Origin: Anastrepha obliqua
Lineage: Eukaryota; Arthropoda; Insecta; Diptera; Tephritidae
Reading direction: 5' to 3'
Assembly (NCBI RefSeq): GCF_027943255.1
Contig: NW_026562179.1
Location: 2,978,501-3,042,500 of the forward strand
Length of the DNA stretch: 64,000 nucleotides
The position numbers and the translations under genes are program-made. The notes beneath the pieces are model-generated. The model did not search any database. It was not told the origin of the DNA and was given only the letters and a program-made list of their open reading frames with translations. Below, one piece after another: positions 25,385 to 42,237 of the stretch (position 1 is its first letter; every line of letters begins with the position of its first letter).

Positions 25385-26502
25385 AAACCCTAGTGCGGTT
25401 GGGGCAATTCATCGGAACATGTACGTGGACGATTGGCTGCAGAGCGTAGATACGGAGAAAGAATTTATCGATTTGGCGTTGGAAGTCAAGACTATACACG
25501 GTGAAGGTGGCTTCGAGATGCGCAACTGGCTGTCAAACTCTACCAATTCGCTGCATGCAATTTCCAGGACGGCAAAGCAATCGGGTAAGCTCCTCCAAGA
25601 TCCTTTTATGACATAGGAAAAGGTTCTGGGCATATGGTGGCTGCCTTGGTCGGACGAGCTAGCTTTCTTCGCAAAATTTGATACATCCGTTTTCGGTAAC
25701 AACTGATCTGTCACAAAAAGAAGCGTTCTTCGGGTAATTATGTCTGTTTATGATCCCCTTGGCTTAATTGGGTTTTTTATGATTCAAGCAAAAATCATAA
25801 TGCAAAATATTTGGCGATCTGGCGTCAACTGGGATGCACCTGTGAAAAAAGACGAGCACGAAGCATGGCAGTCATGGGTTCGATTGTTACCACGAATACA
25901 TGACGTACATATACCACGCTGTTACCCCTTAGCCAGCTTTACTCACGACGCTCAGCTCCATATATTCTACGACGCGAGCAGTGTAGCGTACGCGGCAGCT
26001 GCTTATCTAAGAACCACCGTCAGTGGTAAGGTGAAATGTTGTTTAGTGGCTTCGAACTCGCGAGTGGCGCCACTGAAACCAGTTTCTATACCGCGGTTAG
26101 AACTGATGGGTGCCATTTTGGGCTATTAGAAATGAATTACCTTGCCTATCAGCGAGGAGGTGTACTGGAACGATTCAAAGAACATTCTTCACTGGATCCT
26201 ATCTGACACTCGAAAGTTCAGTCCATTTGTTCGCATAAGAATCGGAGAAATTTTGGAGTCATCTAGCATCAATAACTGGAGGTGGGTGCCTTTAGCCGAC
26301 AACGTTGCGACGACGCCACAAAGTTGAAGCAGTGGTCGAAGTTGGATGGAGAATCGCGTTGGTTCCAAGGTCCTCAATTCTTGACTGTGCCTTCCTTGGA
26401 GTGGCCACAGACGATTTTAGTGAACTCTGCAGAATATGAGTTAGTTCATCACATCGAGCTTAATACAACACTTAGCTTCACATCCTTTACGGAAGTTGTA
26501 CC
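25338..26502 (+). pseudogene. BEL RT end, RNase H and start of integrase region
   Basis: RT resumes at GAIHRNMYVDDWLQ (catalytic YVDD), directly after the protease, so the first half of RT is deleted. Next come SVYDPLGLIGFFMIQAKI, the Pao RNase H region with LHIFYDASSVAYAAAAY and VSIPRLELMGAILGY, then VYWNDSKNILHWI and RWFQGPQFL. Three stops or shifts (about 25616, 26129, 26327) break it. The reading runs directly into the Maverick target site TGTACC at 26497-26502 and resumes at 42238. Confidence 0.82.
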
Positions 26503-27512
26503 AGTAGTATGTATATTCCGGACTACAGGACAATGTCAAAAATGTTAAAATTTTAACATTTTTTATTATTTTAACTCAAAAATTTAACATTTTTACCATT
26601 TAACTCATTTTTTTAACTTACAGTTACTCAAAATTTTAACATCTTTTAACATTTAACTCATTTTTTTAGCTTATATTATCTCAAAAAATAAATGTTAAAA
26701 TTTTGATGTGGGTCGATGAGTCCAACCCTAAATTATAGTTACTCGTAGTTAATATTTTTGAGGTACTCGTAAGCAATATTTGGGGTGGCGCCCTAATAAG
26801 GCGCCACCCTATATTATAGTTACTCGTAGTTAATATTTTAAGGTATTTAAGATATATATTTTTGATGTACTCGTAATCAATATTTGAGGGTGGTACCTTA
26901 TTAAGGTACCAACCTTAAATTATAGTTACTCGTAGTTAATATTTTTAAGATATTAAAGATATCTATTTTTGAAGTACTCGTAATCAATATTTAGGTTGGT
27001 ACAGTTAAAATTTTGAGTTGGGTCGATGTCTATTAAGTGAAAAAATGTTAAAATATTCATTACAAAATATTTAAAGTAATCTATTCAAAAACAAACAAAC
27101 AAAAAAAAAAAGGATACATTTATTTTTTAAAGTACCTTTCAAAAAAAACGACGAACTCCACAAAACAAGAGTCTTTGAGCCAGATTTGAACTTGCAACAA
27201 AATTATTGTTATAATTCCAACTGCTTAACCAACTCATCTAAACATCATATTCTGAAGTAATGTAATTACAGCTGAGTAGTATGCAAAGCAAGTAATGTTG
27301 ATCTTATCAGCATTGCTCACAATCTATAAATAGAATAAGCTTTATTTTATATCATTGACAGAGTTAATATATCAAAGCTTTTATATCAAAGCAAGCTTAA
27401 TTGCAAGATAAGCATAATATTTGATAACACATGGTTACAAGTGCAATAAATAATTATTGCACATGCTTACAAGTGCAGTATGTATTTAGCGTTAGAAGAG
27501 GGTGGACGCAAA
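26503..27512 (+). repeat. Maverick left terminal inverted repeat
   Basis: It matches the reverse complement of 41189-42237. It includes three copies of a TACTCGTAGTTAATATTTT-type unit and three of TACTCGTAA(T/G)CAATATTT. There is a perfect 10-bp-stem hairpin GGGTGGCGCC/GGCGCCACCC at 26783-26809, a second GGTACC-centred hairpin near 26890-26915, and a tRNA-like stretch at 27171-27243. Confidence 0.92.
27171..27243 (-). other. tRNA-like sequence in the left TIR
   Basis: On the minus strand a TAGATGAGTTGGTTAAG block resembles a tRNA A box. About 40 bases on, AAGTTCAAATCTGG resembles a B box with a near-complete T arm (4 of 5 pairs). Acceptor and D stems pair poorly, so a functional tRNA is unlikely. 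An identical copy is at 41484-41556. Confidence 0.45.
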
Positions 27513-27524
27513 ATAATTGAAACT

Positions 27525-28369
27525 TTAAATTTGAACTCTTTGAAGTTCAAATTTATAAAATTTACCCAATATTGGTTCATAATTTAAATCTCTTATTAAA
27601 TATGTTATTGGATTAGAAGGATAAATTTTACTAATATAAAATATTTCTCGAGTCCAATTATTTTTATATTTGTTTTCAAATTGTTTTTTATGTGATTGAA
27701 TTCTTACTTTTTCTCCAATTTTAAAAACTGGTTTTTCTAAATTGTTTCTATTAATTTTAAAACAATTATCAAAAATTAATTGTTCATTTTTTTCATTTAC
27801 TTCACAAGGTTTCATACCAATAGTTCTATGTACATCTTTGTAATTATATTCGTATAATATTTTATCAATTACATCAATCCAATTAGTATTTTTCTGAATT
27901 TCAAATCGTATTTTTAGTTTTTCATTAATGGTTCTATTAAATCTTTCTACAATTGATGATTTCTTTTCACTAAATGTTTGATACATGTTAATATTGTATT
28001 TATCTAAAACTTCTTGAAAATGTTTATTTAAAAATTCTTTACCAGAATCTGTATGAAGTAATTTTGGGGCACAACCTGCTTTTTAATAATATTTAAAAAT
28101 GCTTCAGAAGTTGTTTTTCCATCTTTCTTTTTTAATGGCTCTATATAAGCAAATTTAGAAAATGTATCAATTACATTAAGCATATATTTGTATCCTCTAT
28201 TAATTCTAACATTAACTGTTGTCATAATTAGTAAATCTGCTGCCAATAGTTCATTTATGCCTTTAGTAATAATTTTTCTTCTTTCAAAATTTTTTCTTAC
28301 TGGTTTATGCAACTCTTTTGCTATTTTAAAATCATTATTTTTAGTATCAATAAATTCATCTTTATCCAT
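27525..28369 (-). pseudogene. Maverick retrovirus-like integrase, one frameshift
   Basis: This DDE integrase inserts the element into host DNA. N-terminal part (28369-28028): KPVRKNFERRKII, then AADLLIM (first catalytic D) and YMLNVIDTFSKFAY. C-terminal part (27986-27525): EKKSSIVERFNRTI (catalytic E) and an SH3/chromo-like tail, FKIGEKVRIQSHKKQF. The second catalytic D lies in an HTDSGKEF motif, just past the break near 28075, in the other frame. Only one frameshift is apparent. The gene ends 13 bp from the TIR edge and is divergent from the next gene with only 37 bp between start codons, so they may share a promoter. Confidence 0.88.
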
Positions 28370-28406
28370 TTCAAAAATATTTAAAATTTATTTTAATTAA
28401 ATAACA

Positions 28407-29702
28407 ATGATATCAGATAAAGTTTTAAAAGAATATATTAAAACACAAAAAGACTTAAAAAATAAACTTCAACAATATAATTTAAATAAAGTAATAAAAC
28501 AAGAAAAAATTAATGAAGATCTTCAAGCAATTATTCAACCATTAAATCAATCAGTTATTAATAATCATAATTTAAATGATAGCTTTAAAAATTTAATAGA
28601 CGATTTAAATCAATTATATAAAACTAAAACATTAGATGAACATGTTTCCTTCGGAAAACAACGTGAACATGTTGACTTCGGAAACCGTTCACAAGGTGAA
28701 CATGAAAATATTTCGAAAACGTTTGACAATGTCAAGCAAGTTTCCAAAGGAAACGACACGGAAAGTGAATATACTTCCAAAGGAAACGATTCACAACATG
28801 AATATAAACCACCTAACAATAATGTGAATTTACAAACTAATGATTTTAACGAAAAGCAACTATCACCAATTAGAAAAACAAACAAACAAAAATTAGTTGA
28901 AAGTACACCAACAACTAGCACAGGTTCACGAAGCGAACCGTTGACTCCATCAACATCAAAAGACGCTCTTTTGCGTAGTGCAAATGAAACGTTATCTACA
29001 CCAGTACAATTTATTTCAGAAAAAATTAGAAATATGGCAATGAAATATTTAAATTTAAATAATTCTGATATGAAATTATGTGACAATATTTTTGGTCTAA
29101 GATCTGAAGATGGAAAAGATTTATGGATTGGTAATACTGAAGTAAAAATTTGTAATAATGATATTATTTTAAATAATAAAACTTATAATGGAACAAAAGG
29201 GTTATGGGAATTAATAACTTTAAAAGAACCATCAACAGCTGTAACAAATAATGATTTACAAAATTATGAAGAAATTATATTATCAACATATGCTTACATG
29301 CAAAATAATGACAAAAGTTCTAAACGTATTAAATCTAGTGTTGGAAATAAATATATGAATTTTATTAGACCAATATTGATTAAAAATAAAATTATAAAAG
29401 AAAAAGTAGGATCTGGTTTAAATTCAAAAAATAATCTTTCAAAATCATTACAAAATTTTAAAATTAAAACTAGTTTACCTACTGAATATGTTCGTTTTGC
29501 GAATCGTTCACAATGTGAACGTGTTTATTGGAATGATATTAATGAATTAAAAGATAGATTAAATTTGTTGTTAGGAGAGTATAATGCAGGAAATGATAGT
29601 CCAGAAATACATAATGAAATTATGAATATTATTGAGGAACTAAGAGAAGAAAATATGTTGACTCTGTCAACGGTTTCCGAAGGAAACGTATTAACTGTTT
29701 AA
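28407..29702 (+). CDS. Maverick protein with DUF8207-like domain, 431 aa
   Basis: Function unknown. Residues 1-60 are lysine/glutamine-rich and likely coiled coil. Residues about 70-130 are a low-complexity array built from palindromic DNA modules, giving VSFGKQREH, VDFGNRSQGEH, VSKGNDTESEY and TSKGNDSQHEY. The C-terminal half has NIFGLRSEDGKDLWIGN, NNKTYNGTKGLWELIT and KYMNFIRPIL. I recognise this from uncharacterised Maverick-linked arthropod proteins labelled DUF8207. More palindromic modules sit at 28923-28954, 29506-29520 and 29657-29687. The intact frame and the 37-bp divergent spacing from integrase argue it is a real gene. Confidence 0.75.
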   Translation: MISDKVLKEYIKTQKDLKNKLQQYNLNKVIKQEKINEDLQAIIQPLNQSVINNHNLNDSFKNLIDDLNQLYKTKTLDEHVSFGKQREHVDFGNRSQGEHENISKTFDNVKQVSKGNDTESEYTSKGNDSQHEYKPPNNNVNLQTNDFNEKQLSPIRKTNKQKLVESTPTTSTGSRSEPLTPSTSKDALLRSANETLSTPVQFISEKIRNMAMKYLNLNNSDMKLCDNIFGLRSEDGKDLWIGNTEVKICNNDIILNNKTYNGTKGLWELITLKEPSTAVTNNDLQNYEEIILSTYAYMQNNDKSSKRIKSSVGNKYMNFIRPILIKNKIIKEKVGSGLNSKNNLSKSLQNFKIKTSLPTEYVRFANRSQCERVYWNDINELKDRLNLLLGEYNAGNDSPEIHNEIMNIIEELREENMLTLSTVSEGNVLTV

Positions 29703-29750
29703 TTAAATTACATATAAATTTAAATAAATTAAAAAATTTTTTTCTAATAA

Positions 29751-30296
29751 ATGGGAATTGATAAGTTTGGACAAAAATCTTTTTCAGAAATAAATTCATC
29801 TAATGAATATTCTCTTAATAGAATAATATCATTAGAAAATGAAGTTGAAGAAATTCGTTCAAATAGTGATCAAATGAAAGATATTATTAGTAAATTAATG
29901 GAATTAAATCAACTACTTCAAAATGAAGTTGAAAAACAAGAAAAAGGTAATGTGGTAGCTTTTGGTATTGTATATAAAGAAATAGAACAATTAGAAAATA
30001 ATTTAAATCATGATATTATTAACCTAACTAAACGAGTAGATTTTATAGATACACATATTGAAAATTTTAAAAACAGTTTAGAAAAACAATTGAATAGTTA
30101 TTCAGAAAAACAAATTTTAATTGATAATTATCTTAAAGATTTAGTTTTACAAAATAAAGACAATATTAATCAAAATAATAAGATTGATAAAAGTATTCAA
30201 GTAGATGAATATATAAAACAATTAAATATTGAAGAAAGTGAAACAGATATTCAAGAAAGTAAACTACAAATTGAAACAAATATAATTCAAAAATAA
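29751..30296 (+). CDS. Maverick coiled-coil protein, 181 aa, unknown
   Basis: Not recognised by family. Residues about 25-65 (ISLENEVEEIRSNSDQMKDI) and 80-140 show heptad-like spacing of I/L with E/K/N, so a long coiled coil is likely, as in virion fibre or scaffold proteins. There is no signal peptide or membrane segment. It follows the DUF8207-like gene on the same strand after 48 bp and is intact. It contains no palindromic module. A structural or assembly role is only a guess. Confidence 0.6.
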   Translation: MGIDKFGQKSFSEINSSNEYSLNRIISLENEVEEIRSNSDQMKDIISKLMELNQLLQNEVEKQEKGNVVAFGIVYKEIEQLENNLNHDIINLTKRVDFIDTHIENFKNSLEKQLNSYSEKQILIDNYLKDLVLQNKDNINQNNKIDKSIQVDEYIKQLNIEESETDIQESKLQIETNIIQK

Positions 30297-30470
30297 TTTA
30301 AAAAATTCATACATATATAAATGATAAACAAAAATAATAAATCAAAATAAAAATTCAAATATTCAACATCGTTGAAATATGTTCACATCATATTTCATTT
30401 GAAATTAAAAAAAAAACTTAATCTAATATAATTAATAATTTAATGTATAGTAAAAAGGAGGGGGTTCGTT
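30297..30470. other. Convergent intergenic gap
   Basis: AT-rich spacer between convergent genes. The poly(A)/poly(T) runs could serve transcription ends of both. Nothing else is seen. Confidence 0.35.
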
Positions 30471-33400
30471 TTAGTTACCTACATTTCTTATTTTATAATG
30501 TCCCCAGGGTAATTTGTAAGTCTTATTTAACTTATCGTTATCATTATTATTCAACTTTTTATTGAAATAAAACTTATCATCATAAGGTGTTAATCCTATT
30601 TTATTTTCTTCTGTAGTATATAGTTTCATATCATATGATCTAATATTATGAACAGTTTCATTTTTATTTTTTAAATTAATTAAACAATTCTTATAATCTT
30701 CAATTGTTAACTTTTTAATATTATTTTTCTTTATTCCTTTACAAACTTTTTTATCACAAACATCGGTCTTAAATGCATACATTTTACTTCTAAGTCCACA
30801 AAATTCTCTAATTGGTATTTCATTATATTCATCTTTAAATTTTCCTGGTACTTTTTTATTAATATTAGATTTTAAATCTTCAATTGGAAAATTATCTATA
30901 TAATCACTGGTATCATAATTATCTAGATCATCTTTCATTTCAGAATAAATATCAAAATCATCATCAATATGTTTACCTTCAAAATAAAGAATAAATGAAT
31001 CAGTATCTGTTCCTAATAATTTCATTCTATTACCATATTTAGTTTTAAGTTGTACATACATTTTAAACATTAATAATTTTGATAAATATAAAATATTTTG
31101 ACCTCCAAAGATAGGTTTATTTAATTTAATATTTGTATTTTTTCCGAACACTACACACATATTATGATCTATTATTTTTCTTGATTGATATGTATTTCTA
31201 CTTATTAGTTTTCTCATAATTTTTTCAGTTTTAACTATTCTAACATTAAATCTATTTCTAACATTTTCCATTTGCTTACCATATACACTATTATTCATAA
31301 GTTTGAAAAAATCTTTTTCAAAATCGTTTTTAGCTTCTTTTCTAAGTGTTCTATTTTTTTCAATATAATTTTTTAACCATGCTTCTTGTCTACATTTAAT
31401 ACCTTTATGAATTTTAGTTAAAATTACACCATTATTCAAATATTCTTTTAATAATCTTATATCAATTATATAATTTTTCTTTGGTAACAACGTACACATT
31501 AATTTTTTAATTTTATCATTTGGTTTACTACCAATCCCTTTATTAATTAAGTCTGTTTGATTTGGTGATAAATCTTCAAATTGTGGAACATAATGATGAG
31601 GTGCTGGAGCATAATCATTATAAAAGTTGTGTAATTCCGGAGGAATACTTATATCAACTTCTAAAGTATATCCAATATCACTATCATCAAAATTATCATT
31701 TAAAATATTATTAACATTACAAAAATATTTAATTTCATCTTCATTTAACCATTCATGATTACCAACACTTAATTTTTGTGACATAGCCCATCCATATAAG
31801 TTATTTGCATCTAAATATAAAATATAACTTGTTAATTTTTTAGAATCGTATATACCTTTAAGAGAAGCTTCCTCTTTACTTAATTTATAAACTTGTTCTA
31901 CAATATCAGCATGTTCCTTTCGGGAACCGTTGACATGGTCAACATGTTCACTCTGTGAACCGTTGACAGAGTCAACGTAATAATAACAATTATTAGCTTT
32001 AGCATAGTTATGTGCAATTTGTGATATTCCACCTCTAGTTCCACTTTCATAAAATTCATACATATCTTGATCTGTTAATAATTCTAATTTTTGTTTGGTT
32101 AATTTTAAAGCAGATGAATTACTTAAATGTGGTGAACTTATATAATGTATAGGATCTAAATTATAATTTTTAAAACATTCTTTTCTAAAATTATCAAATA
32201 CATCACTTAAAAGTATAACATCTAATTTCAAATACCAGTTATGATAGTCTCTAAATGTTTTACAATTAAAATGTTTCCAAAATTTATTTGCAAATTTATA
32301 ATCGTTAATATTAATATTTCCATTTAATGATGAATTAAAATCTTTATAATCTGGAAGTGTTGTTATATTAAATTTCTTCTTATCATCAACAAATTCATAT
32401 GGATATACACCTTTTCTAAGTAAATAACATTTATTTTTAATGATAGATTTTTAAAAATATTATTAAAGTTTTCTAAATGATCAAAATTAATAGGTTTTAT
32501 ATTTTTAGTATTACAAACTGAACAAATACTACAAGCATATATTTTATTCTCAGTATTTTTACTAACTTTATAAGATACATAATTTATATTTCTTATTTTC
32601 TTACATGTTACACAATATATATCATTAACATCTAATAAATTTTTAACAGCTTTATCTAATGAAGTATTTATAAATTCCATTGAATCTATAAATCTTAATT
32701 CTATTTTTTCGGCAACTGTATATAATTCTAAATCTGTTGATTCACATTTACAACAGGTGTCTCTTGTTATGAAATTATACTCATATTTACATTTTTTATT
32801 TTTACATTTTAAATATTTAGTTTCACCTACAATAACTGGTTTTTTAATTAGTTTAAATTTTTCAGTACTTGTTGCTAAAACACTAGTTTCAGTTTCAGGA
32901 TGAAATTCATCTAAATATTTTAGAAATAATTTTGAATCATAACCTTTTAAATTATGAATAATAATTGGTAAAAATTTTGGCATCTTTAACTTTAACAAAT
33001 TCATATGGATATACACCTTTTCTAAGTAAATAACATTTATTTTTTAATGATAGATTTTTAAAAATATTATTAAAGTTTTCTAAATGATCAAAATTAATAG
33101 GTTTTATATTTTTAGTATTACAAACTGAACAAATACTACAAGCATATATTTTATTCTCAGTATTTTTACTAACTTTATAAGATACATAATCTATATTTCT
33201 TATTTTCTTACATGTTACACAATATATATCATTAACATCTAATAAATTTTTAACAGCTTTATCTAATGAAGTATTTATAAATTCCATTGAATCTATAAAT
33301 CTTAATTCTATTTTTTCGGCAACTGTATATAATTCTAAATCTGTTGATTCACATTTACAACAGGTGTCTCTTGTTATGAAATTATACTCATATTTACATT

Positions 33401-35288
33401 TTTTATTTTTACATTTTAAATATTTAGTTTCACCTACAATAACTGGTTTTTTAATTTGTTTAAATTTTTCAGTACTTGTTGCTAAAACACTAGTTTCAGT
33501 TTCAGGATGAAATTCATCTAAATATTTTAGAAATAATTTTGAATCATAACCTTTTAAATTATGAATAATAATTGGTAAAAATTTTGGCATCTTTAACTTT
33601 AGATTACATGTATTACATAAAGCCATTCTATATTTACCAGTTGTATGGTCATGATCCCAACATTTTATAATTTCTTCAGAAAAGGAAATATCACAAATTT
33701 CACAATTGTTAGTATTATCAAACTTTAGTATCGATTCTTTATCCTGAATTATATTATTCAATTTTCTTACTTCATAATAATCTTTAGCATATTTTATTAA
33801 ATTATCTAAGAATGATTTCAATAGCACTTTTCTATTAGAAGTATTCTTTGAAATATATTGTTTGTTATAAGTGTTATAAATACCATAACTATTTGGAATG
33901 TGTTCATGAAGTAATATTGTATTTTTACATTTGTCAGATTTTTTTTTATTAATTTTTTCCAAAGTACATTCAAAATCAGCATATAAAGTATATGGATGAA
34001 ATAGTTCTGCTCCAATAGATTTATATTTTAAAATATTTTCACCCTCTTTAGGTAACTTTATATTTTGTATTATATTATTATCATCTTTTAATAAATAACA
34101 TGTTTTTATATGTTCTTCTAATTCATCAGATTTTTCAAAATGTTTAAAACATTTATTACAAATATGTAGATGTTCATGCTGATGATGAATTTTACCACTT
34201 AAAAATCCAGATAAATTTGTAAGTAGTACAAAGTGAGATTTGTATGTTTCTTCTGTAATATTTTTTTCTATATATATAATATTAACATGTTTTTTTGGCA
34301 AACCATTAACGAAATAACGAAAAGAGTTACTTTTATACATTAATTGAATTTGGTAATATTCATCATCATTTTTTTCTGAATCATAATGATAAAAATTCAT
34401 GGTAATATTAAAATAATCTTCTAATATTTTAACATTTTCTTCATTAATTATAAATGGAAATTCTAAATTTAGATTTTTAAATTTATCATCATTTTCTAAA
34501 TCTTCAAGATATTTTTTATATTTTGTTGGTCTTTCTGGATGAATTTTTAACACATCTTGATAAATAGAATATAAGATACAATATAAAATACATTTATTAT
34601 CAGTATTTTTAATATTAACACAATTTCTATTAGTAAATGGAATATATGATCCAGCAAGAATTTGAGACTTATCTCTACTAATATGTGTTTTTACTATTCT
34701 AACAAAGCTAGCTGTAGATCCTTTTGTACATTTTTCTGAGAATTTATTATTTATTTCCTCTATCATTAAATAAAATTCTTTTGTATAGTTTAATTTATTA
34801 ACATAATGTATTTCTGATCTATACCAATATTCATAACTTTCTTTAATTTTATTAGTTTTTTTATCAATAATCACAATATTTACCGCTGTTGCTAAAGACA
34901 CTTTAAAATTACTATATTTTTTAAAACCTTCGAAAAAATATTTGAAACAATTTCTTTTTATTAATTCTAAATGTCTTTTAATATTAAATTCTTGATTATT
35001 TGTAAACTCTAAATCAGCAACCATATTGTTAAAACATGAACTATTTTTAATTTGTTTTTCTTGAATATCAATAATATCAAAATCATAATCATCAAAATTT
35101 AGAAATATATTTTGAATAACATCATTATTATGCTTTTCTATTAAAACATTTATTATGTTTAATAAACTATTTTTATTTTTATTATACCAATATTTTGGCA
35201 ATTGAAAAATATGTTTATTTGCTCTAATATATTTTTTTAAATTTTTTAAATTTTTAGATTTCAATTCTTTAATATTAAATGGATTCAT
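30471..35288 (-). pseudogene. Maverick protein-primed DNA polymerase B, disrupted by an internal duplication
   Basis: This polymerase replicates the element from a terminal protein primer. From the start at 35288: an N-terminal helical region; a C2HC finger (CNKCFKHFEKSDELEEHIKTC-type); exonuclease I motif YADFECTLEKI; an endonuclease-VII-like zinc site WDHDHTTGKYRMALCNTC; Exo II with IIHNLKGYDSKLFLKY; Exo III YLKLDVILLSDVF at about 32235; Pol A DANNLYGWAMS; Pol B KLMNNSVYGKQ; Pol C LLGTDTDSFILYF. A 606/607-bp tandem duplication (32388-33600) ends the first frame at 32952, and a 1-base difference shifts the second copy. Palindromic modules at 31913-31976 add VDSVNGSQSEH before Pol A. Confidence 0.9.
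32388..33600 (-). repeat. Tandem duplication of about 607 bp inside PolB
   Basis: Units 32388-32993 (606 bp) and 32994-33600 (607 bp) differ by one indel in a T run and a few substitutions. The unit covers Exo II through a cysteine-rich stretch (CKNKKCKYEYNF...CCKCES). It introduces a premature end. Confidence 0.9.
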
Positions 35289-35443
35289 TTTTATTTGGTT
35301 GATATTTTTACTTAATTTTTCCTTATTTATATAGAAAATTTTTTTTTTAAATAAATTAACTTCTCGTCTTTATACAATATAAAATTATAATACTTTAAAG
35401 TGTGATGTAAATACCAATTAATTTTATTAAACTTAATTGGATA

Positions 35444-35826
35444 TTAATTTTTATCATTAATTTTTTCATTATTTTCTTTATTGTTAATAAATTTAATATG
35501 AAATTGAGATTTTAAATGACGTTGTTTATTTGATAAAGTATAATTTACACCACATTCACGCTCTATTTTTTTATTTCTACTTGGTAATGTGTTACGATAT
35601 GCAAATTTTTGATTGTAACATTTTTTACAATACCCCTTATTCAAATTAGAAATATTTGTTTCTTCCAAACATGAAAAACATATTTTTTTACCATCTATAA
35701 TAGATAAACATATTTTTCACCATTTACTATTTTATGATATAATCTTTGTTTTGGTATGTTTCCTTCGGAAACTGTTTCCTGCAGAATCATAATTTCACTC
35801 ATTATTTCCAATTTATTAACAAACAT
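35444..35826 (-). pseudogene. Maverick small zinc-binding protein, one frameshift
   Basis: Start near 35826 (MFVNKLEIMSE...). A palindromic module at 35758-35772 encodes VSEGN. A frame change near 35700 leads into the 35668-35444 stretch. That stretch has paired cysteines CFSCLEE...GYCKKCYNQK, then CGVNYTLSNKQRHLKSQFH, suggesting a zinc ribbon followed by a C2H2-like finger. Function unknown; DNA binding is plausible. It lies between polB and penton on the same strand. Confidence 0.6.
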
Positions 35827-35843
35827 TTTTTTTTAAATTTATA

Positions 35844-36566
35844 TCAATTTACATTTCTAATATTTAATCTTATACTAATTTTTTCTTTTTTAAAATCAAT
35901 TAAATTATTATCCTGATCAACTATATAAATAGTTATATTTCTAATAGTATTTGTATTTACTGGATAGTATATTAAATTTCTAGGTATTTCATTTATTTTT
36001 TCACCAGGTTTATCGTTAATGAAAAATTCATGAATAATAGTTGTTTGTTTATTATTTTCATAACTACCTCCTACAATATTACATTTTATTCTAATAGAAT
36101 TAACATTCATAATATTTACTGGTAAATCAGATGATACTAATGTATTAGGTTGAATAATTTGTTCACTAAATCCTAGTAATGAAGCTATGGAATTTTTTTG
36201 TGTAAAATCAATAATATAATTACTTTTAATTTCAACTTTTAATGTTGTCATATTTGGTTTAATAGTAATACCCTTTATTTTCTCTTTTATAAAATTGTTT
36301 ATATCATTTATTTCATATGAACCAGTTGGGAATGTAATTATTTTGTTAACACTGTTAATTGTATGTAAATTATCTTGTGAATCATTTCCATCGGAAACAT
36401 AATGTAAAATATTATTTTTTAATTTTTCAGATATATTCGGTATAGAATTATAAGTAGAAAAATTAAGCAAACACATTTCAAAATCATGTTTATTATCTAA
36501 AATTATTGGTTCATCAAAATTACATGAAATTATTGAAGTATTTCCATCTAATGATATAGTTGGCAT
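35844..36566 (-). CDS. Maverick minor capsid (penton) protein, 240 aa
   Basis: This is the single-jelly-roll penton protein that fills the capsid vertices. Recognisable Polinton blocks: TFPTGSYEINDINNFIKE, NMTTLKVEIKS, DFTQKNSIASLLGF, RIKCNIVGGSYENN and RNLIYYPVNTNTIRN followed by IYIVDQDNNLIDF. The frame is intact. A degenerate palindromic module at 36384-36398 encodes VSDGNDSQ in an early loop. The stop lies 18 bp from the zinc gene start, and the start lies 3 bp from the protease stop, so the genes form a tight co-directional cluster. Confidence 0.88.
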   Translation of the reverse strand: MPTISLDGNTSIISCNFDEPIILDNKHDFEMCLLNFSTYNSIPNISEKLKNNILHYVSDGNDSQDNLHTINSVNKIITFPTGSYEINDINNFIKEKIKGITIKPNMTTLKVEIKSNYIIDFTQKNSIASLLGFSEQIIQPNTLVSSDLPVNIMNVNSIRIKCNIVGGSYENNKQTTIIHEFFINDKPGEKINEIPRNLIYYPVNTNTIRNITIYIVDQDNNLIDFKKEKISIRLNIRNVN

Positions 36567-36569
36567 TAT

Positions 36570-36905
36570 TTAATTAAGTAAAAATTTTAAACATAGGTGA
36601 CCACAAATTATTTCATTTACAGTATTTTCATTAGTTTTGAAATATTTTTCTATTAATATTGGTAATTTATTTATAGCAAAGGAATCATAGTAAAAAATAT
36701 GATTATTATATTTTTTATATGCTACCCAGTGTGTACCATTACCATCATTATTATCTAAATTTATTATTCCACATTCTATATCTTTTATCTTTTCTGGTAA
36801 TCTATCTTTCATGAATACACCCCTAAAATTTGCTATATTAAATATTCTAATATAGCATATTTTTTTAAATCATAATTACTTAATGGTTTAATTGGAATTA
36901 ATTCA
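36570..36905 (-). pseudogene. Maverick adenain-like cysteine protease, frameshifted
   Basis: This protease matures capsid proteins. The 80-codon open part (36812-36570) holds the catalytic triad in family order: GTHWVAY (His), YYDSF (Asp) and CGHLCLKFL (Cys). The usual N-terminal segment (KPLSNYDLKKYAILEYL) is seen upstream at about 36840-36905 in another frame, ending in a stop. One frameshift near 36835 therefore separates it from the catalytic part. Length is otherwise normal, about 110 aa. It overlaps the end of the PLA2 gene slightly. Confidence 0.82.
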
Positions 36906-37854
36906 AAATCAAATTTTTTTTAAGTAACATACCATTACCAGATTTTTTAAGTAACATACCATTACCAGATTTTATATTTTTTTCTTCTAATGCTTTATTA
37001 TGACGTATTTTTTCTTCTAATAATTTATCGTTAGTTTTTTTATCATTATATGCTCTATATAATGTTGTTCCTGCAGTAACTGCAGCTCCTATTGCTGGAA
37101 TAAGTGGTAATAGTGCTTGTAAAAATCCGCCAATTTTTTCATTATTAAAACTTTGTAACTGAGACATAGATAATTTTAATATAAAAATTTTAAAAGTAGT
37201 TTTATTATTATCTAAATGTTTTTTTATAGAATTAATTTGTTTTCTAGTTAATGGTAAATATGTTTCATTCATTACACTTTCTTTAGTTCTTTGTAATTGA
37301 ATTGGTTCTAATTTTATAGTAATATCTGTTTTATTTTTCATAGCATCATAAACTTGTTTTTGTTGATCTTCATTTAGTGATATTGGATATTTAATATATC
37401 GTCCACATTTTGGAATAAAATTAATTTCATTTTCATTTCTATTATGTTCACTTTGTGAACCGTTAACAGAGTCAACATTTATCAATTCTTCAGTTGATGA
37501 ATTGTGAGTTGTTAAACCCATACCCATTTTTCTTTTAAATTTCATAGCATTAGTAGTTAAATATGCATTTACTTTTTCTGATAAACTAGCATCTTTTGCT
37601 GAAACTCTTGACCATGCTTTATCTTCTAAAATTTTATCAGCTTCATGTCTTTTCTTTATATCATTACTTTTAGAATATGCAATATCGTGTTCTTTAGCTG
37701 CTTCATCTAATTTATTAATTGGATGTATATCTTTTTCAAGTTTTAATTCAAGATTAGTACCAGGTCCTAAATAATTATATCCTGGAGAATGTAATTCAAA
37801 TGGAAGATTATTTATAAGATTATTTATAATACCACTACCATAATATGGTACCAT
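36898..37854 (-). CDS. Maverick PLA2-domain / pX-like capsid-associated protein, 318 aa
   Basis: Residues about 20-60 carry a parvovirus-type phospholipase A2 signature: a YLGPGT calcium loop and the catalytic DEAAKEHDIAY helix. Such domains help particles cross membranes. That role is known from parvoviruses and only inferred here. The middle carries VDSVNGSQSEH from palindromic modules at 37446-37476. A hydrophobic, glycine-rich segment, GGFLQALLPLIPAIGAAVTAG, resembles the membrane-active region of adenovirus-like minor core proteins. The C-terminus repeats SGNGMLLKK twice (a direct DNA repeat at about 36917-36970). The frame is intact. Confidence 0.82.
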   Translation of the reverse strand: MVPYYGSGIINNLINNLPFELHSPGYNYLGPGTNLELKLEKDIHPINKLDEAAKEHDIAYSKSNDIKKRHEADKILEDKAWSRVSAKDASLSEKVNAYLTTNAMKFKRKMGMGLTTHNSSTEELINVDSVNGSQSEHNRNENEINFIPKCGRYIKYPISLNEDQQKQVYDAMKNKTDITIKLEPIQLQRTKESVMNETYLPLTRKQINSIKKHLDNNKTTFKIFILKLSMSQLQSFNNEKIGGFLQALLPLIPAIGAAVTAGTTLYRAYNDKKTNDKLLEEKIRHNKALEEKNIKSGNGMLLKKSGNGMLLKKNLILN

Positions 37855-37983
37855 TTATTATAATAGAAAATGTGATGTATTTATATTTCTTCATATATAT
37901 TTATTATATTTATTATATTTACCAAATTTTTAGAAATTTTCAGTATATACTAAGCGATTTTAGTGGAGAAAATTTAACGAATA

Positions 37984-38064
37984 TGAATGAAGTAAAAGAA
38001 TTATTATATAATATTATGTCATTAATTCAAAAAATGGAAAAAAATTATTATTTAAATGGAAGAT
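37984..38064 (+). CDS. Small Maverick ORF, 27 aa
   Basis: ATG at 37984 (MNEVKELLYNIMSL...) overlaps the next gene's start by 9 bp on the same strand. It is short and amphipathic. It may be a real micro-gene or leader of the capsid operon. Confidence 0.3.
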
Positions 38065-38238
38065 AAAATAAAATGTGATAAAAATAATCAATTATCAAAA
38101 ATAGATTTTATTATTTCAAATGGAATAGATAAAATAATGCAAAATGAATACATTTCAATGGTACTAATTATTATTCTATTAATAATGTTTTTTTATAATT
38201 TGATAAGACAATTAAATACAAGACTACAATTATTTTAA
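38056..38238 (+). CDS. Small Maverick membrane protein, 60 aa
   Basis: It has one predicted transmembrane segment, SMVLIIILLIMFFYNLI, at residues about 34-50, preceded by a charged N-terminus. Family not recognised. Position just upstream of the major capsid gene suggests a virion or assembly role, but that is inference. Confidence 0.5.
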   Translation: MEDKIKCDKNNQLSKIDFIISNGIDKIMQNEYISMVLIIILLIMFFYNLIRQLNTRLQLF

Positions 38239-38302
38239 ACATAGGTTTCGACCTAGTCAAAACATATTAGTAAATTTTTAATAATATTTTTTAGTTAAAT
38301 AA

Positions 38303-39508
38303 ATGAAAGAAGAAAAAGGTATCGAATCTTATGACTTTTATGAACATTTGCCATCTAATTCTACACTATTAAATGAATATGGAAGACCAATAGAAATAAA
38401 TATTAATAAACAAGACATTAAAACGTTACCATCAAAAAGTTTACTTAATATTAGAGGTCAAATTATTGCTAAAGATAAAGATGGTAAAATATTAGATAAA
38501 CTTAATCCTGATAAAATAAATTTTGTGAATAATGGTATAATAAATCTGTTTAGTAAAATTACATATTTTATTAATTCAGTTGAAATTGATAAAATTGAAA
38601 ATCCTGGAATAACAACAACAATTAAAGGCTTAGCATCATTTTCTAATGATTTATCATTAAATAATGCTGGTTGGCAAATTGTAAATAAAGGTAGTGTTTG
38701 TAATAAGAAAGGTTATTTTTCTGTTAGCATTCCATTATGTATATTAATTGGGTTTTTTGATGATTACAAAAATTTCATTTTTAGAATTAATCAAAAATTA
38801 GAATTAATAAGATCAAATGATGATACAAATTGTTTAATTATTGATAGTGGTTTAAGTGATCATACTTTTTCTATTGATATTAATCAAATTATATGGAGAA
38901 TGCCTCATGTTAAATTTTCAGTTGAAGTTGATCATGAAATTAATAAAAAAATTTCAAATAATACAAACTTTCAAATGTATTTTAGAAATTGGAGATATTA
39001 TTGTACTACTGCAATTCCAGCTGTAAAGACTTATACCTGGAATATAACATCATCTAGTGCTAAACCTAGATATTTTCTTATTGCATTTCAAACATTAAGA
39101 AATCAGAATAATTATAAAGACAATAGTAAATTTGACCATTGTAATTTAGAAAATGTTGTAGTTAAATTAAATACAAATAGATATCCAAACTATGATATGC
39201 AACTATCTATTAATCAAAATAAATTTGATACATTATATAATATGTTTCTAGATTTTAAAAATTCATATTATGGTTCTAGTATAAATAATTTACCAATAGT
39301 TAATTATGATACATTTTTAAAAGAATATCCAATAATATGCATTGATACATCTAAACAGAATGAGGTAATTAAAGAGGCTGCTATTGATATTAAAATTGAA
39401 TTTAAATGGACAGAAGATTTTCCATCAAATACAGTCGTTCACTGTTTAATTATTAGTGATGATAGTTATTCATATAATCCACTAACAAATCAAGTGATGC
39501 ATGTTTGA
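38303..39508 (+). CDS. Maverick major capsid protein (double jelly roll), 401 aa
   Basis: This is the hexon-like shell protein. Family landmarks: an N-terminal DFYEHLPSNSTLLNEYG, INSVEIDKIENPG, a domain boundary around SDHTFSIDINQIIWRMPHV, the paired-strand block NFQMYFRNWRYYCTT, YFLIAFQTLRN, PNYDMQLSINQNKFDTLYNMF and the C-terminal ICIDTSKQNEVIKEA. The frame is intact, with no palindromic insertions. It is shorter than the largest Polinton hexons but has both jelly-roll halves. It is followed 110 bp later by the packaging ATPase on the same strand. Confidence 0.88.
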   Translation: MKEEKGIESYDFYEHLPSNSTLLNEYGRPIEININKQDIKTLPSKSLLNIRGQIIAKDKDGKILDKLNPDKINFVNNGIINLFSKITYFINSVEIDKIENPGITTTIKGLASFSNDLSLNNAGWQIVNKGSVCNKKGYFSVSIPLCILIGFFDDYKNFIFRINQKLELIRSNDDTNCLIIDSGLSDHTFSIDINQIIWRMPHVKFSVEVDHEINKKISNNTNFQMYFRNWRYYCTTAIPAVKTYTWNITSSSAKPRYFLIAFQTLRNQNNYKDNSKFDHCNLENVVVKLNTNRYPNYDMQLSINQNKFDTLYNMFLDFKNSYYGSSINNLPIVNYDTFLKEYPIICIDTSKQNEVIKEAAIDIKIEFKWTEDFPSNTVVHCLIISDDSYSYNPLTNQVMHV

Positions 39509-39617
39509 CTTGTTTTTTTTTTTTATTTTTATAAAATTAAAATTAACTAAAAATTAATTGAAATAAATATGTAATTCATTATATTAATAATGAAAAAATG
39601 TATCTAAAATTCTAATT

Positions 39618-40325
39618 ATGGATGGTCTTTTAAAAGTTACTAAATTAGATAATAAAATTAAATTAACTATTCAAAATTTTGATACTCATAAACCAATAAA
39701 AAGATTAAATGAAATATTTCCGAATATTATTAGAGCAATTATTTGTGGACCAAGTAATTGTGGAAAAACAAATGTATTATTAAATATATTATCAAAGATT
39801 TATTATTCTGATATAATAATTTGTTCAAAAACTTGCTATCAAGAAAAATATAAATTTTTGGAAGATATGATAATTCAATTCAATAAATTGTGTGTTAAAA
39901 ATGATTTGGAATCTAAAGATATAAAATGTTTATCAATTCAATCTCTACCAACACCTGAAAATATTAAACCATATTCTGTAATAATATTTGATGATATCTC
40001 TACAGAACAGCAAGATAATATTGCCAATTATTTTGCTTATGGTAGACACAATAACATTTCTTGTTTTTATTTATGTCAAACATATTCAAAAATTCTTAAA
40101 CAATTGATAAGAGATAATGCAAACTATATAATTATATTTAAACAAGACAAGACTAATCTGAAGCATATATTTAATGACCATTGTAATGATATTGATTATG
40201 ATATTTTAAAAAATATGTGTATTCAATGTTGGAAAGAACAGTTTGGATTTTTAGTAATAGATAAAGAACAAGAAACAAATGATGGTAGATACAAAAAAAT
40301 GTTTGAATTTTTCTTTACAATATAA
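39618..40325 (+). CDS. Maverick FtsK/HerA-like DNA-packaging ATPase, 235 aa
   Basis: It pumps DNA into capsids. Walker A is ICGPSNCGKTNVLL near residue 40. Walker B is VIIFDDIS near 120. A conserved ARxxxIS-type block follows as GRHNNISCFYLCQTYSK near 140, as in A32/Polinton ATPases. The C-terminus ends NDGRYKKMFEFFF. The frame is intact. Together with the capsid genes it shows the element once encoded particles. Confidence 0.92.
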   Translation: MDGLLKVTKLDNKIKLTIQNFDTHKPIKRLNEIFPNIIRAIICGPSNCGKTNVLLNILSKIYYSDIIICSKTCYQEKYKFLEDMIIQFNKLCVKNDLESKDIKCLSIQSLPTPENIKPYSVIIFDDISTEQQDNIANYFAYGRHNNISCFYLCQTYSKILKQLIRDNANYIIIFKQDKTNLKHIFNDHCNDIDYDILKNMCIQCWKEQFGFLVIDKEQETNDGRYKKMFEFFFTI

Positions 40326-40367
40326 AAAATGTTTGAATTTTTGTTTGAATAAGATTTTTATTTTTTA

Positions 40368-40940
40368 TTATTTCCATTTATTTTGGAAATCTTTATATTC
40401 TTCATTATTTACATTAAAAACTTTATCTAATATTTTTCTATATTTATATAATCCATCAGTGGTTATATCTAAATTTTGCAATTTTTGGTAATTCAATACC
40501 AAAATGCCTATATAACGTAATTTACAAGCATAGCTTTCACTTATCTTAAATTTTATATATATATCTTTCATAGTTGTATATTTACATTTTACACCAATTT
40601 TTTTATAACCTTTTTCTAATTGCAATTTTCTTGCATATTCTTCTAAAATTAATCCTATTGTAGAATTTATATAAAAAGTATTTTTCTTATTCTGTAATAA
40701 TAATTTATTAATTTCAATTAATTTTGTAATATTATCATTAATACTATCTTTTTGTAAATTTTGTATAAATTCACTATCAATTTTAAAATCTAAACCAACT
40801 GGTATAGACTCGTTTACATATTTTGATTCCAATAATTTTTTTAAATCTATGAAATCAAATTCTCTTTTATCTTTCTTATAATTTTTTTTATCTTTTTTAT
40901 CCATAAACATATCATCCAAAAAAATTTTTATATTTTTCAT
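40368..40940 (-). CDS. Unknown Maverick protein, 190 aa, possible HTH
   Basis: Not recognised. The N-terminus is lysine/aspartate-rich. The C-terminal half has a helix-turn-helix-like stretch, MKDIYIKFKISESYACKLRY, followed by a helical segment ending KVFNVNNEEYKD. It might bind DNA and regulate the element, but this is inference. The frame is intact, convergent with the ATPase, and 249 bp from the right TIR. Confidence 0.5.
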   Translation of the reverse strand: MKNIKIFLDDMFMDKKDKKNYKKDKREFDFIDLKKLLESKYVNESIPVGLDFKIDSEFIQNLQKDSINDNITKLIEINKLLLQNKKNTFYINSTIGLILEEYARKLQLEKGYKKIGVKCKYTTMKDIYIKFKISESYACKLRYIGILVLNYQKLQNLDITTDGLYKYRKILDKVFNVNNEEYKDFQNKWK

Positions 40941-40949
40941 TTTTTATTT

Positions 40950-41188
40950 TTAGGCCAATGCCTTCAAATATAATGAGCTAAAAGAAGCATTTTTTTTTAA
41001 TAAAATAAAATTACTGAAGATTACTAAATCTTCCAAAAACTCACCCCTTTCATCATCGAATCCATCCATACTTTCATCAATATCCATACTTTCTTCTGAA
41101 ACAAATAAATAAATTAATAAAAACTTAAAAAATTGCAAAAAAAAAAAAAAAAACTTACCAGCCATAGTTACAAAATCTTTTTTTTTTT
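40950..41188. other. Low-complexity spacer
   Basis: Poly(A)/poly(T) runs and short GATGGATGG-like repeats precede the right TIR. I see no credible gene. Confidence 0.4.
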
Positions 41189-42237
41189 TTTTGCATCCAT
41201 CCTCTTCAAACGCTAAATACATACTGCACTTGTAAGCATGTGCAATAATTATTTATTGCACTTGTAACCATGTGTTGATGTATAAAAGCTTAATTGAATA
41301 TTCTAGATCAAATATTATGCTTATCTTACAATTAAGCTTGCTTTGATATAAAAGCTTTGATATATTAACTCTGTCAATGGTATAAAGCTTATTCTATTTA
41401 TAGATTGTGAGCAATGTTGATAAGATCAACATTACTTGCTTTGCATACTACTCAGCTGTAATTACATTACTTCAGAATATGATGTTTAGATGAGTTGGTT
41501 AAGCAGTTGGAATTATAACAATAATTTTGTTGCAAGTTCAAATCTGGCTCAAAGACTCTTGTTTTGTGGAGTTCGTCGTTTTTTTTGAAAGGTACTTTAA
41601 AAAATAAATGTATCCTTTTTTTTTTTTGTTTGTTTGTTTTTGAATAGATTACTTTAAATATTTTGTAATGAATATTTTAACATTTTTTCACTTAATAGAC
41701 ATCGACCCAACTCAAAATTTTAACTGTACCAACCTAAATATTGATTACGAGTACTTCAAAAATAGATATCTTTAATATCTTAAAAATATTAACTACGAGT
41801 AACTATAAATATATAATATTTATAATTATCAAATATTGATTACGAGTACATCAAAAATAGATATCTTAAATACCTTAAAATATTAACTACGAGTAACTAT
41901 AATATAGGGTGGCGCCTTATTAGGGCGCCACCCCAAATATTGCTTACGAGTACCTCAAAAATATTAACTACGAGTACCTCAAAAATATTAACTACGAGTA
42001 ACTATAATTTAGGGTTGGACTCATCGACCCACATCAAAATTTTAACATTTATTTTTTGAGATAATATAAGCTAAAAAAATGAGTTAAATGTTAAAAAATG
42101 TTAAAATTTTGAGTAACTGTAAGTTAAAAAAATGAGTTAAATGGTAAAAATGTTAAATTTTTGAGTTAAAATAATAATAAATGTTAAAATTTTAACATTT
42201 TTGATATTGTCCTGTAGTCCGGAATATACATACTACT
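41189..42237 (-). repeat. Maverick right terminal inverted repeat
   Basis: It is the inverted counterpart of 26503-27512. It carries one extra TACCTCAAAAATATTAACTACGAG-type unit near 41955-41995 and has lost the GGTACC hairpin seen on the left. The GGGTGGCGCC hairpin is kept at 41907-41933. Confidence 0.92.
41484..41556 (+). other. tRNA-like sequence in the right TIR
   Basis: Exact inverted copy of 27171-27243. A-box-like and B-box-like blocks read outward toward the element end. Confidence 0.45.

What the first reader, a model, noticed from the sequence alone, without database searches (positions are those of the whole stretch)
28640..37480. In-frame palindromic protein-coding elements scattered through a Maverick
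At least fifteen 15-bp palindromes of form GTTNNC-NNN-GNNAAC occur only inside the Maverick. Examples are 28687-28701, 28740-28754, 29506-29520, 29657-29671, 29673-29687, 31929-31943, 31946-31960, 31962-31976, 35758-35772 and 37446-37460. They often come in pairs (GTTGAC module + G + GTTCAC module). They lie inside five different genes (DUF8207-like, PolB, zinc protein, penton, PLA2 protein), mostly in one frame encoding V(D/S)xxN(G/D/R)SQxEH. This looks like a small mobile or copy-spreading palindrome that inserts without breaking frames, as Rickettsia palindromic elements do. I know of no report in Mavericks.
Basis: partly seen in the sequence, partly recalled or inferred. Interest (0 to 1): 0.9.

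Follow-up and report, generated by a model that had tools for sequence, protein, structure and literature searches.

The report
Tiny jumping hairpins in Maverick genes
Virus-like Maverick elements in this animal genome carry 31-base double-hairpin sequences that insert into their genes with a 2-base target duplication, so each such insertion adds exactly 11 amino acids without shifting the frame; similar mobile hairpins are known from bacteria and mitochondria, and I found no report of them in Mavericks.

Summary
The palindromes are real. The Maverick (26498-42242) has 13 matches to GTTNNCNNNGNNAAC, 10 of them perfect; dinucleotide shuffles average 0.05 and 0.011. In the own genome (836 Mb) the exact double pattern has 37 places, the reversed control none. 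All 37 lie in pieces with Maverick genes. Maverick copies with and without a unit give exact empty sites. The flanks overlap by 2 bp: usually AT, but AC at the PolB site. Insertions therefore add 33, 36 or 39 bp, all multiples of 3. All three frames occur. Arms change together, so the palindrome is kept rather than the peptide. Two copies on one contig, compared over about 4.4 kb, differ there only in unit clusters. Homologous proteins from other sources lack the segments. Best reading: a small mobile hairpin element confined to Mavericks, working like yeast mitochondrial GC clusters but tolerated in genes as Rickettsia palindromic elements are. The mobilising enzyme is unknown.

The parts
26498..42242 (.). 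Maverick/Polinton (adintovirus-like) copy that carries the units; terminal inverted repeats of about 1 kb
   Evidence: 98% complementary arms 26498-26781/41959-42242 and further arms; DJR major capsid, A32-like ATPase, PLA2 and Endonuclease VII matches
28640..28701 (+).
   Evidence: the same cluster differs in unit content between Maverick copies
28740..28754 (+). single perfect palindrome GTTTCCAAAGGAAAC in the same gene
28924..28954 (+). partly decayed double unit GTTCACGAAGCGAAC-C-GTTGACTCCATCAAC; a perfect form GTTCGCGAAGCGAAC-G-GTTGACTCCGTCAAC stands here in L068, L073 and L121
29490..29520 (+). double unit (first half decayed) making an exact 11-codon insertion, VRFANRSQCER, between EY and VYWND of the DUF8207-like protein
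   Evidence: 6 of 6 homologous proteins lack the 11 residues; coordinates checked
29657..29687 (+). perfect double unit at the 3' end of the DUF8207-like gene, read in frame as LTLST/VSEGN; empty site seen in 9 other pieces (L068, 70, 73, 76, 86, 98, 106, 115, 121)
31913..31943 (-). second double unit in PolB (GTTGACCATGTCAAC-G-GTTCCCGAAAGGAAC on the coding strand), absent from L067 and L078
31946..31976 (-). first double unit in PolB (GTTGACTCTGTCAAC-G-GTTCACAGAGTGAAC on the coding strand); L089 has the empty site, target duplication AC in L067 and L078
35758..35772 (-). single perfect palindrome between the penton and PolB frames, with a probably decayed partner half beside it; at the same place it is perfect in L124, L126, L129 and imperfect in L074, L075, L077
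36368..36398 (-). old decayed unit in the penton gene (GTTTCCGATGGAAATGATTCACAAGATAATT); several other copies carry further unit sequence beside it
37446..37476 (-). double unit in the PLA2-domain gene (peptide VDSVNGSQSEH), AT on both sides; L077, 84, 85, 88, 97 lack it (their flanks have diverged slightly), L066 has one, L060, 62, 65 carry four

Best explanation
These are copies of a very small non-autonomous mobile element. It is two adjacent hairpins (31 bp; longer-armed forms of 34 and 37 bp) that inserts at a short AY target (AT, sometimes AC) and duplicates those 2 bp. Shown: insertion relative to empty sites, the 2-bp duplication, presence/absence between closely similar Maverick copies, co-varying arms, confinement to Mavericks, and open frames that contain units. 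Inferred: the units move while the Maverick DNA is replicating or recombining. An activity supplied in trans cuts the target with a 2-nt stagger, a hairpin copy is joined in, and repair fills the gap. Each arm is corrected against the other through the hairpin, which keeps the palindrome while its sequence drifts. Units persist in genes because 31, 34 or 37 bp plus 2 bp is a multiple of three and an open frame exists. They then spread between copies by recombination, which also shuffles and tandemly stacks them. Which enzyme does it is unknown; the Endonuclease VII-like domain encoded in the Maverick's own PolB region is one candidate.
For: Filled and empty copies at the same site: in 34 filled unit/flank combinations the flanks overlap by exactly 2 against the copies without the unit, although overlaps of 0 to 4 were allowed; the only other value is 1, with copy L066, which has one extra A. 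Target duplication AC at the PolB site (L067, L078 against L089) and mostly AT elsewhere. The exact double pattern has 37 places in the genome and 0 in the control, all in pieces with Maverick genes. In the pieces compared, copies C1:30.16M and C1:142.3M are 100% identical over 1332 and 1632 bp and over the DUF piece except for two differences, both in units or unit clusters. Variable arm pairs are Watson-Crick in 25 of 28 (expected 34% and 51% for the two columns). Homologous proteins lack the segments. PLA2 frames are open at 318, 332, 363 and 374 aa with different unit numbers.
Against: No mobilising enzyme was found. Some targets resemble a unit: the DUF 3' site reads ATTGAC after the AT, and the L058 site follows an old decayed palindrome, so copying guided by short homology is not excluded. 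Many of the 34 combinations are nested in other units, compare units within one tandem array, are alleles of one site, or are the same event on both strands; L100-L103 repeat places already held. About seven sites are not inside a unit. At one of these (L093) the empty copies read CT where the filled copy has AT; at the first PLA2 site the duplication was read by eye from an alignment with diverged flanks. The two C1 copies are not identical throughout: their capsid proteins score differently against the window's (894.8 and 884.8 bits), so exchange with other copies could explain their unit differences. Losses also occur, so the direction of some differences is uncertain.
Confidence: 0.76

Rival explanations
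1. Template switching by the Maverick's own polymerase. A stalled strand pairs through 2 nt (AT) with the AT beside a unit elsewhere, copies one unit period and returns. No transposase-like step is needed and the 'target duplication' is only microhomology.
For: Most units are flanked by AT (AT on both sides in 23 of 39 distinct unit/flank combinations; for the two 34-bp rows the script itself required AT on one side). Tandem stacking with a 33-nt period and unit shuffling. Some targets resemble unit starts.
Against: At the PolB site both flanks are AC in L067 and L078 and the empty copy has a single AC. This needs a donor flanked by AC or a true target duplication. The exactness of one unit per event without donor flank is not explained.
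Confidence: 0.3
2. The palindromes are functional sites (packaging, transcription, RNA-binding hairpins) kept by selection in the Maverick, and only look mobile.
For: Confined to Mavericks; palindromicity kept while sequence varies; the three units folded each form two 6-bp hairpins, -9.8 to -11.4 kcal/mol.
Against: Number and position differ widely between copies, including very similar ones. They lie in non-coding DNA and in at least four genes. No Rfam family reaches its gathering score in the window's Maverick. Three pieces of much more distant, decayed Mavericks of the same genome have none.
Confidence: 0.06
3. Ordinary in-gene repeat expansion (slippage) of an 11-codon peptide repeat under protein-level selection.
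For: Tandem arrays of 11-residue units in PLA2 and PolB.
Against: Units appear at unrelated sites, also in non-coding terminal DNA (L058, L059, L072). Different frames encode different peptides. The DNA palindrome is kept while residues D..V change to S..G.
Confidence: 0.04
4. Chance or composition artefact of a 22% GC element.
For: A+T-rich DNA has many palindromes: 38 of any 6-3-6 kind against 20 expected. The loosest single form is not enriched genome-wide.
Against: The specific GC-containing ones are 10 against 0.011 expected in the Maverick; the double form is 37 against 0 genome-wide.
Confidence: 0.005

Closest known systems
Yeast mitochondrial GC clusters (e.g. the 42-nt palindromic GC42; PMC4478555, passages read)
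   Same: Short palindromic GC-richer element in a very AT-rich genome; [quoted passage not shown] presence/absence between close relatives; hairpin stems constrained; merging and shuffling of units; mobilising enzyme unknown
   Different: Mitochondrial, mostly intergenic, different flanks; here in Maverick DNA of the nuclear genome, largely inside protein genes, target AT/AC, length compatible with the reading frame
Fungal/sponge mitochondrial double-hairpin elements (DHE/RHE; PMC10085805, PMC2800124, passages read; Paquin et al. 2000 seen only as a reference)
   Same: Two adjacent hairpins as the unit, at variable positions, occasionally in genes; tandem hairpins
   Different: Mitochondrial; in the passages read rarely in protein genes, and no frame relation mentioned; sequence relationship not tested here
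Rickettsia palindromic elements (RPE) and Wolbachia/Methanocaldococcus counterparts (described in PMC2996958 passages; one original asked for and not held)
   Same: Palindromic repeats inserted in frame in assorted protein genes, typically in non-structured segments
   Different: About 100-150 bp (recalled) against 31-37 bp; bacterial/archaeal; here a 2-bp target duplication is seen and non-coding DNA is hit too
[quoted passage not shown] PMC2996958, abstract and passages read)
   Same: Protein-coding tandem repeat with dyad symmetry linked to mobile DNA
   Different: 25-residue/75-nt amphipathic repeat (DUF285); here 11 residues and dispersed single units with empty sites; amphipathicity not computed

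Membership tests
Rickettsia palindromic elements | in-frame insertion into unrelated protein-coding genes | tested here: met
   PLA2, PolB, DUF8207-like and penton genes carry units in frame; homologues or sister copies lack them
Rickettsia palindromic elements | element of about 100-150 bp with the RPE consensus, in Rickettsia (recalled) | tested here: not met
   31/34/37 bp in a eukaryote genome; the RPE consensus itself was not compared. Among 40 prokaryote stretches matching the double pattern only four are double-perfect, all with GTTACC arms
Yeast mitochondrial GC clusters | short palindromic element with a short (2-3 bp) target-like duplication and presence/absence polymorphism | tested here: met
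   2-bp duplication AT/AC; filled and empty copies
Yeast mitochondrial GC clusters | mitochondrial location and AG/ACT flanks | tested here: not met
   nuclear Maverick copies, AT/AC flanks
Double-hairpin elements (DHE) | two adjacent hairpins as one mobile unit | tested here: met
   31 bp folds as two 6-bp triloop hairpins separated by 1 nt (three examples) and is gained or lost as one block
Double-hairpin elements (DHE) | organelle genome and sequence relationship to known DHEs | tested here: not met
   nuclear Maverick location; sequence relationship to published DHEs not tested
PARCEL | 25-residue amphipathic repeat (DUF285) | tested here: not met
   11-residue unit; no Pfam match over the repeats in the window proteins scanned
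MITE of a known DNA transposon | terminal inverted repeats and target duplication of a transposase family in the genome | tested here: inconclusive
   2-bp duplication seen, but AT/AC rather than TA; the whole element is two hairpins; no autonomous partner was searched for

The most novel reading that the evidence does not exclude
A new class of eukaryotic mobile DNA: 31-37 bp double hairpins that live mostly inside the genes of a virus-like element. They are mobilised by the virus's own replication/recombination machinery (perhaps the Endonuclease VII-like domain acting on extruded hairpins, with a 2-nt staggered cut), keep their palindrome by arm-to-arm copying, and continually write new 11-13-residue segments into viral proteins.
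Probability: 0.35. Interest if true: 0.93.

Novelty: new variant of a known kind. Interest (0 to 1): 0.86.

Why it matters
In-frame mobile palindromes were described in intracellular bacteria and an archaeon, and mobile hairpins with short target duplications in mitochondria. How either moves is an old open question. Here both features occur together in what looks like a recently active system, with many similar copies in one genome. Filled and empty sites and the target sequence can therefore be read directly. If the Maverick's own proteins move the units, the mechanism becomes testable in vitro with short oligonucleotides. The units also show how viral proteins can gain short extra segments without frameshifts.

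Tried and rejected
Prokaryote and IMG/VR scans for the joined double pattern gave 11 viral and 40 prokaryote stretches, of the order I would expect by chance for 17 fixed bases (my estimate, not computed by a tool); no viral stretch is double-perfect; four prokaryote ones are (L015, L022, L024, L036), all with GTTACC arms in GC-rich genomes, and L044 has a tandem row of similar palindromes. I read these as unrelated. A protein search with the repeat peptide (residues 124-172 of the PLA2 protein of L060) scored 45 candidates and found none at E 10 or better. It would miss single 11-residue units and proteins far from 363 aa. A viral-contig search with the capsid protein found no relative. PDB search of the PolB piece: none. 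Rfam at gathering scores, window 26400-42300: none. L053 and L076 first looked like units outside Mavericks; both pieces hold Maverick genes and terminal sequence. C2:6887206 and C4:40710189, one-mismatch matches without Maverick context, look like chance (control 4). One search's 113 matches count many places on both strands, and its listing was cut, so not all were inspected. L100-L103 repeat places already held and were left out of the count.
Full report
What is there. The Maverick spans 26498-42242, with about 1 kb of terminal inverted repeat and a GC content of 22%. It encodes a double-jelly-roll capsid protein, an A32-like ATPase, a PLA2-domain protein and an Endonuclease VII-like domain; one homologue of the PLA2 protein is named as an adintovirus protein. 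The pattern GTTNNCNNNGNNAAC occurs 13 times in the Maverick, 10 times as a perfect 6-3-6 palindrome, and twice, imperfectly, elsewhere in the window. In 1000 dinucleotide shuffles of the Maverick the means were 0.051 and 0.011.

The unit. The palindromes are arranged as palindrome + 1 nt (C or G) + palindrome + 2 nt, a period of 33 nt or 11 codons. The 31-nt core folds as two hairpins with 6-bp stems and 3-nt loops, -9.8 to -11.4 kcal/mol for three examples. Longer-armed forms of 34 and 37 nt exist.

Genome-wide. In the own genome (836 Mb) the joined double pattern has 37 exact places and its reversed control has none. Four are in the window's Maverick; every fetched piece around the other 33 contains a match to Maverick proteins of the window, so 37 of 37 lie at Maverick copies. 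Two of them, in L053 and L076, lie a few hundred bases from terminal Maverick sequence rather than in a recognised gene. With one mismatch there are 113 matches, counting many places on both strands, against 4 in the control. The exact palindrome GTTTCCTTCGGAAAC has 34 places and control 0. All 34 lie at Maverick copies. The loose single form GTTSACNNNGTSAAC is not enriched (160 against 251), so single degenerate palindromes are not diagnostic. The capsid search gives 63 matches: ten copies with open frames at 98% or more identity (nine full-length and one of 378 residues) and many fragments. Three 9.9-kb pieces around much more distant, decayed Mavericks of the same genome have no unit; one imperfect single palindrome in L132 looks like chance.

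Empty and filled sites. At the 3' end of the DUF8207-like gene many copies carry a unit, and nine pieces show the site without it. At the PolB site L089 reads TATTATT-AC-GATGATATT and L067 reads TATTATT-AC-[31]-AC-GATGATATT. In the PLA2 gene, five pieces (L077, 84, 85, 88, 97) lack the unit at the first site, with slightly diverged flanks; the window and L066 have one, and L060, L062 and L065 have four. At a second PLA2 site the window and five other pieces are empty, L060 and L085 carry a 34-bp form, and L062, L065 and L084 a further 31-bp unit. In non-coding terminal DNA, L058 and L059 carry a unit that L054, L055 and L072 lack. At a second terminal site L058 and the window are empty (CAACACAT followed by AGTTACAA or GGTTACAA), L054 carries two units and L072 three, each separated by AT. 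A systematic script allowed flank overlaps of 0 to 4. Across 34 filled unit/flank combinations it found an overlap of 2 throughout, apart from L066, whose A run is one base longer. These combinations are not independent: many are nested in other units, compare units of one tandem array or are alleles of one site, and L100-L103 repeat places already held. I count about seven sites that do not lie inside another unit. At one of them (L093) the empty copies read CT where the filled copy has AT. Flanking dinucleotides over 39 distinct combinations were AT/AT 23, AC/AT 7, AC/AC 2, others 7 (the two 34-bp rows were kept only if one side was AT). AT is 14.7% of Maverick dinucleotides.

Recent activity. 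The copies at C1:30.16M and C1:142.3M are identical over 1332 bp of the PLA2 piece and 1632 bp of the PolB piece. Over the DUF piece, about 1.5 kb, they differ only in a 33-bp unit at the 3' site and in a rearranged block (51 bp net, with 12 mismatches in the BLAST alignment) within the N-terminal unit cluster. Both length changes are multiples of three. The copies are not identical everywhere: their capsid proteins score differently. Unit content thus changes faster than the sequence around it in these pieces, through insertion, loss or exchange with other copies.

What is kept. Among 14 distinct palindromes from double units, the two variable arm positions pair by Watson-Crick rules in 25 of 28 cases; independent columns would give 34% and 51%. 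These palindromes share descent, so the cases are not independent. Four arm types occur (CA/TG, GA/TC, TC/GA, CG/CG). At the same PolB site, with the same flanks, L067 and L078 differ in both arms of the first palindrome. The encoded residues change with the arms, and three frames are used (VDSVNGSQSEH, LTLSTVSEGNM and SRSERLTPSTC types). The palindrome is therefore what is kept. The longer-armed forms add matching bases to both arms, which suggests that one arm templates the other (inference).

Coding consequence. The PLA2 frame is open at 318 (window), 332 (L104, L114), 363 (L060) and 374 (L062, L065) residues in copies with different unit numbers. Of the other four pieces examined there, L066 ends at 215 residues, where tblastn shows a frame change, and L084, L085 and L097 run off the piece. 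In L069 the DUF frame is broken. Homologues of the DUF8207-like protein (6 of 6) lack the exact 11-residue segment VRFANRSQCER; the five that reach the C-terminus lack the C-terminal segment. The 16 PLA2 homologues aligned lack VDSVNGSQSEH, and none of the 126 proteins held (the best 120 of 375 PLA2 hits and 6 others) shows both halves of the peptide. The ten capsid copies with open frames align without unit-sized insertions; the gene seems not to tolerate units, or to be missed by them.

Mechanism. Shown: presence or absence of a 31/34/37-bp block with a 2-bp duplication, target mostly AT or AC, Maverick confinement, fast turnover. Inferred: a staggered 2-nt cut and joining by an activity in trans, followed by recombination among copies. 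The Endonuclease VII match (E 1.9e-8, residues 515-564 of the frame at 32952-35288) is a candidate only because T4 endonuclease VII is known to cut cruciforms (recalled). The main rival is polymerase template switching through AT microhomology. The AC duplication at PolB speaks against it but does not exclude it.

Known relatives. Yeast mitochondrial GC clusters are the nearest in behaviour: 42-nt palindromes, AG flanks, merging and shuffling (PMC4478555, passages). Fungal and sponge mitochondrial double-hairpin elements are nearest in form (PMC10085805; PMC2800124; passages). Rickettsia, Wolbachia and Methanocaldococcus coding palindromes are nearest in protein effect (as described in PMC2996958, abstract and passages; the one original asked for is not held). 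No paper on such elements in Mavericks, Polintons or adintoviruses appeared in the rows listed by searches. Several of those searches matched more papers than were listed, and that library lacks most subscription journals.

Noticed in passing
window 32380-33340: The window's PolB region is in pieces: a 300-bp identical direct repeat (32434-32733 and 33041-33340, spacing 607) splits it into overlapping frames. Described only.
   Followed up: partly
window 32952-35288 (-): Endonuclease VII-like domain (PF02945, E 1.9e-8) inside the PolB N-terminal frame; possible cruciform-cutting activity.
   Followed up: no
G000:C6:9007955-9012703: Four copies of a capsid-gene fragment spaced exactly 1479 bp apart, a tandem array made from a Maverick piece.
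   Followed up: no
G000:C6: 39 of 63 capsid matches lie on contig C6 (81 of 836 Mb), all of them partial, while none of the ten copies with open frames is there; perhaps a sex or heterochromatic chromosome (guess).
   Followed up: no
L130, L131, L132: Much more distant, decayed Mavericks in the same genome (capsid 27-42% identical in aligned pieces) without any double-hairpin unit in the pieces read.
   Followed up: partly
L058 and L059: One unit sits at the matching place in two opposite-facing stretches 14.8 kb apart (C3:32059811 and 32074572), which look like the two ends of one Maverick copy, so it was probably copied between the terminal repeats.
   Followed up: partly
L054, L072: Terminal regions contain tandem repeats of roughly 60 bp that differ between copies.
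   Followed up: no
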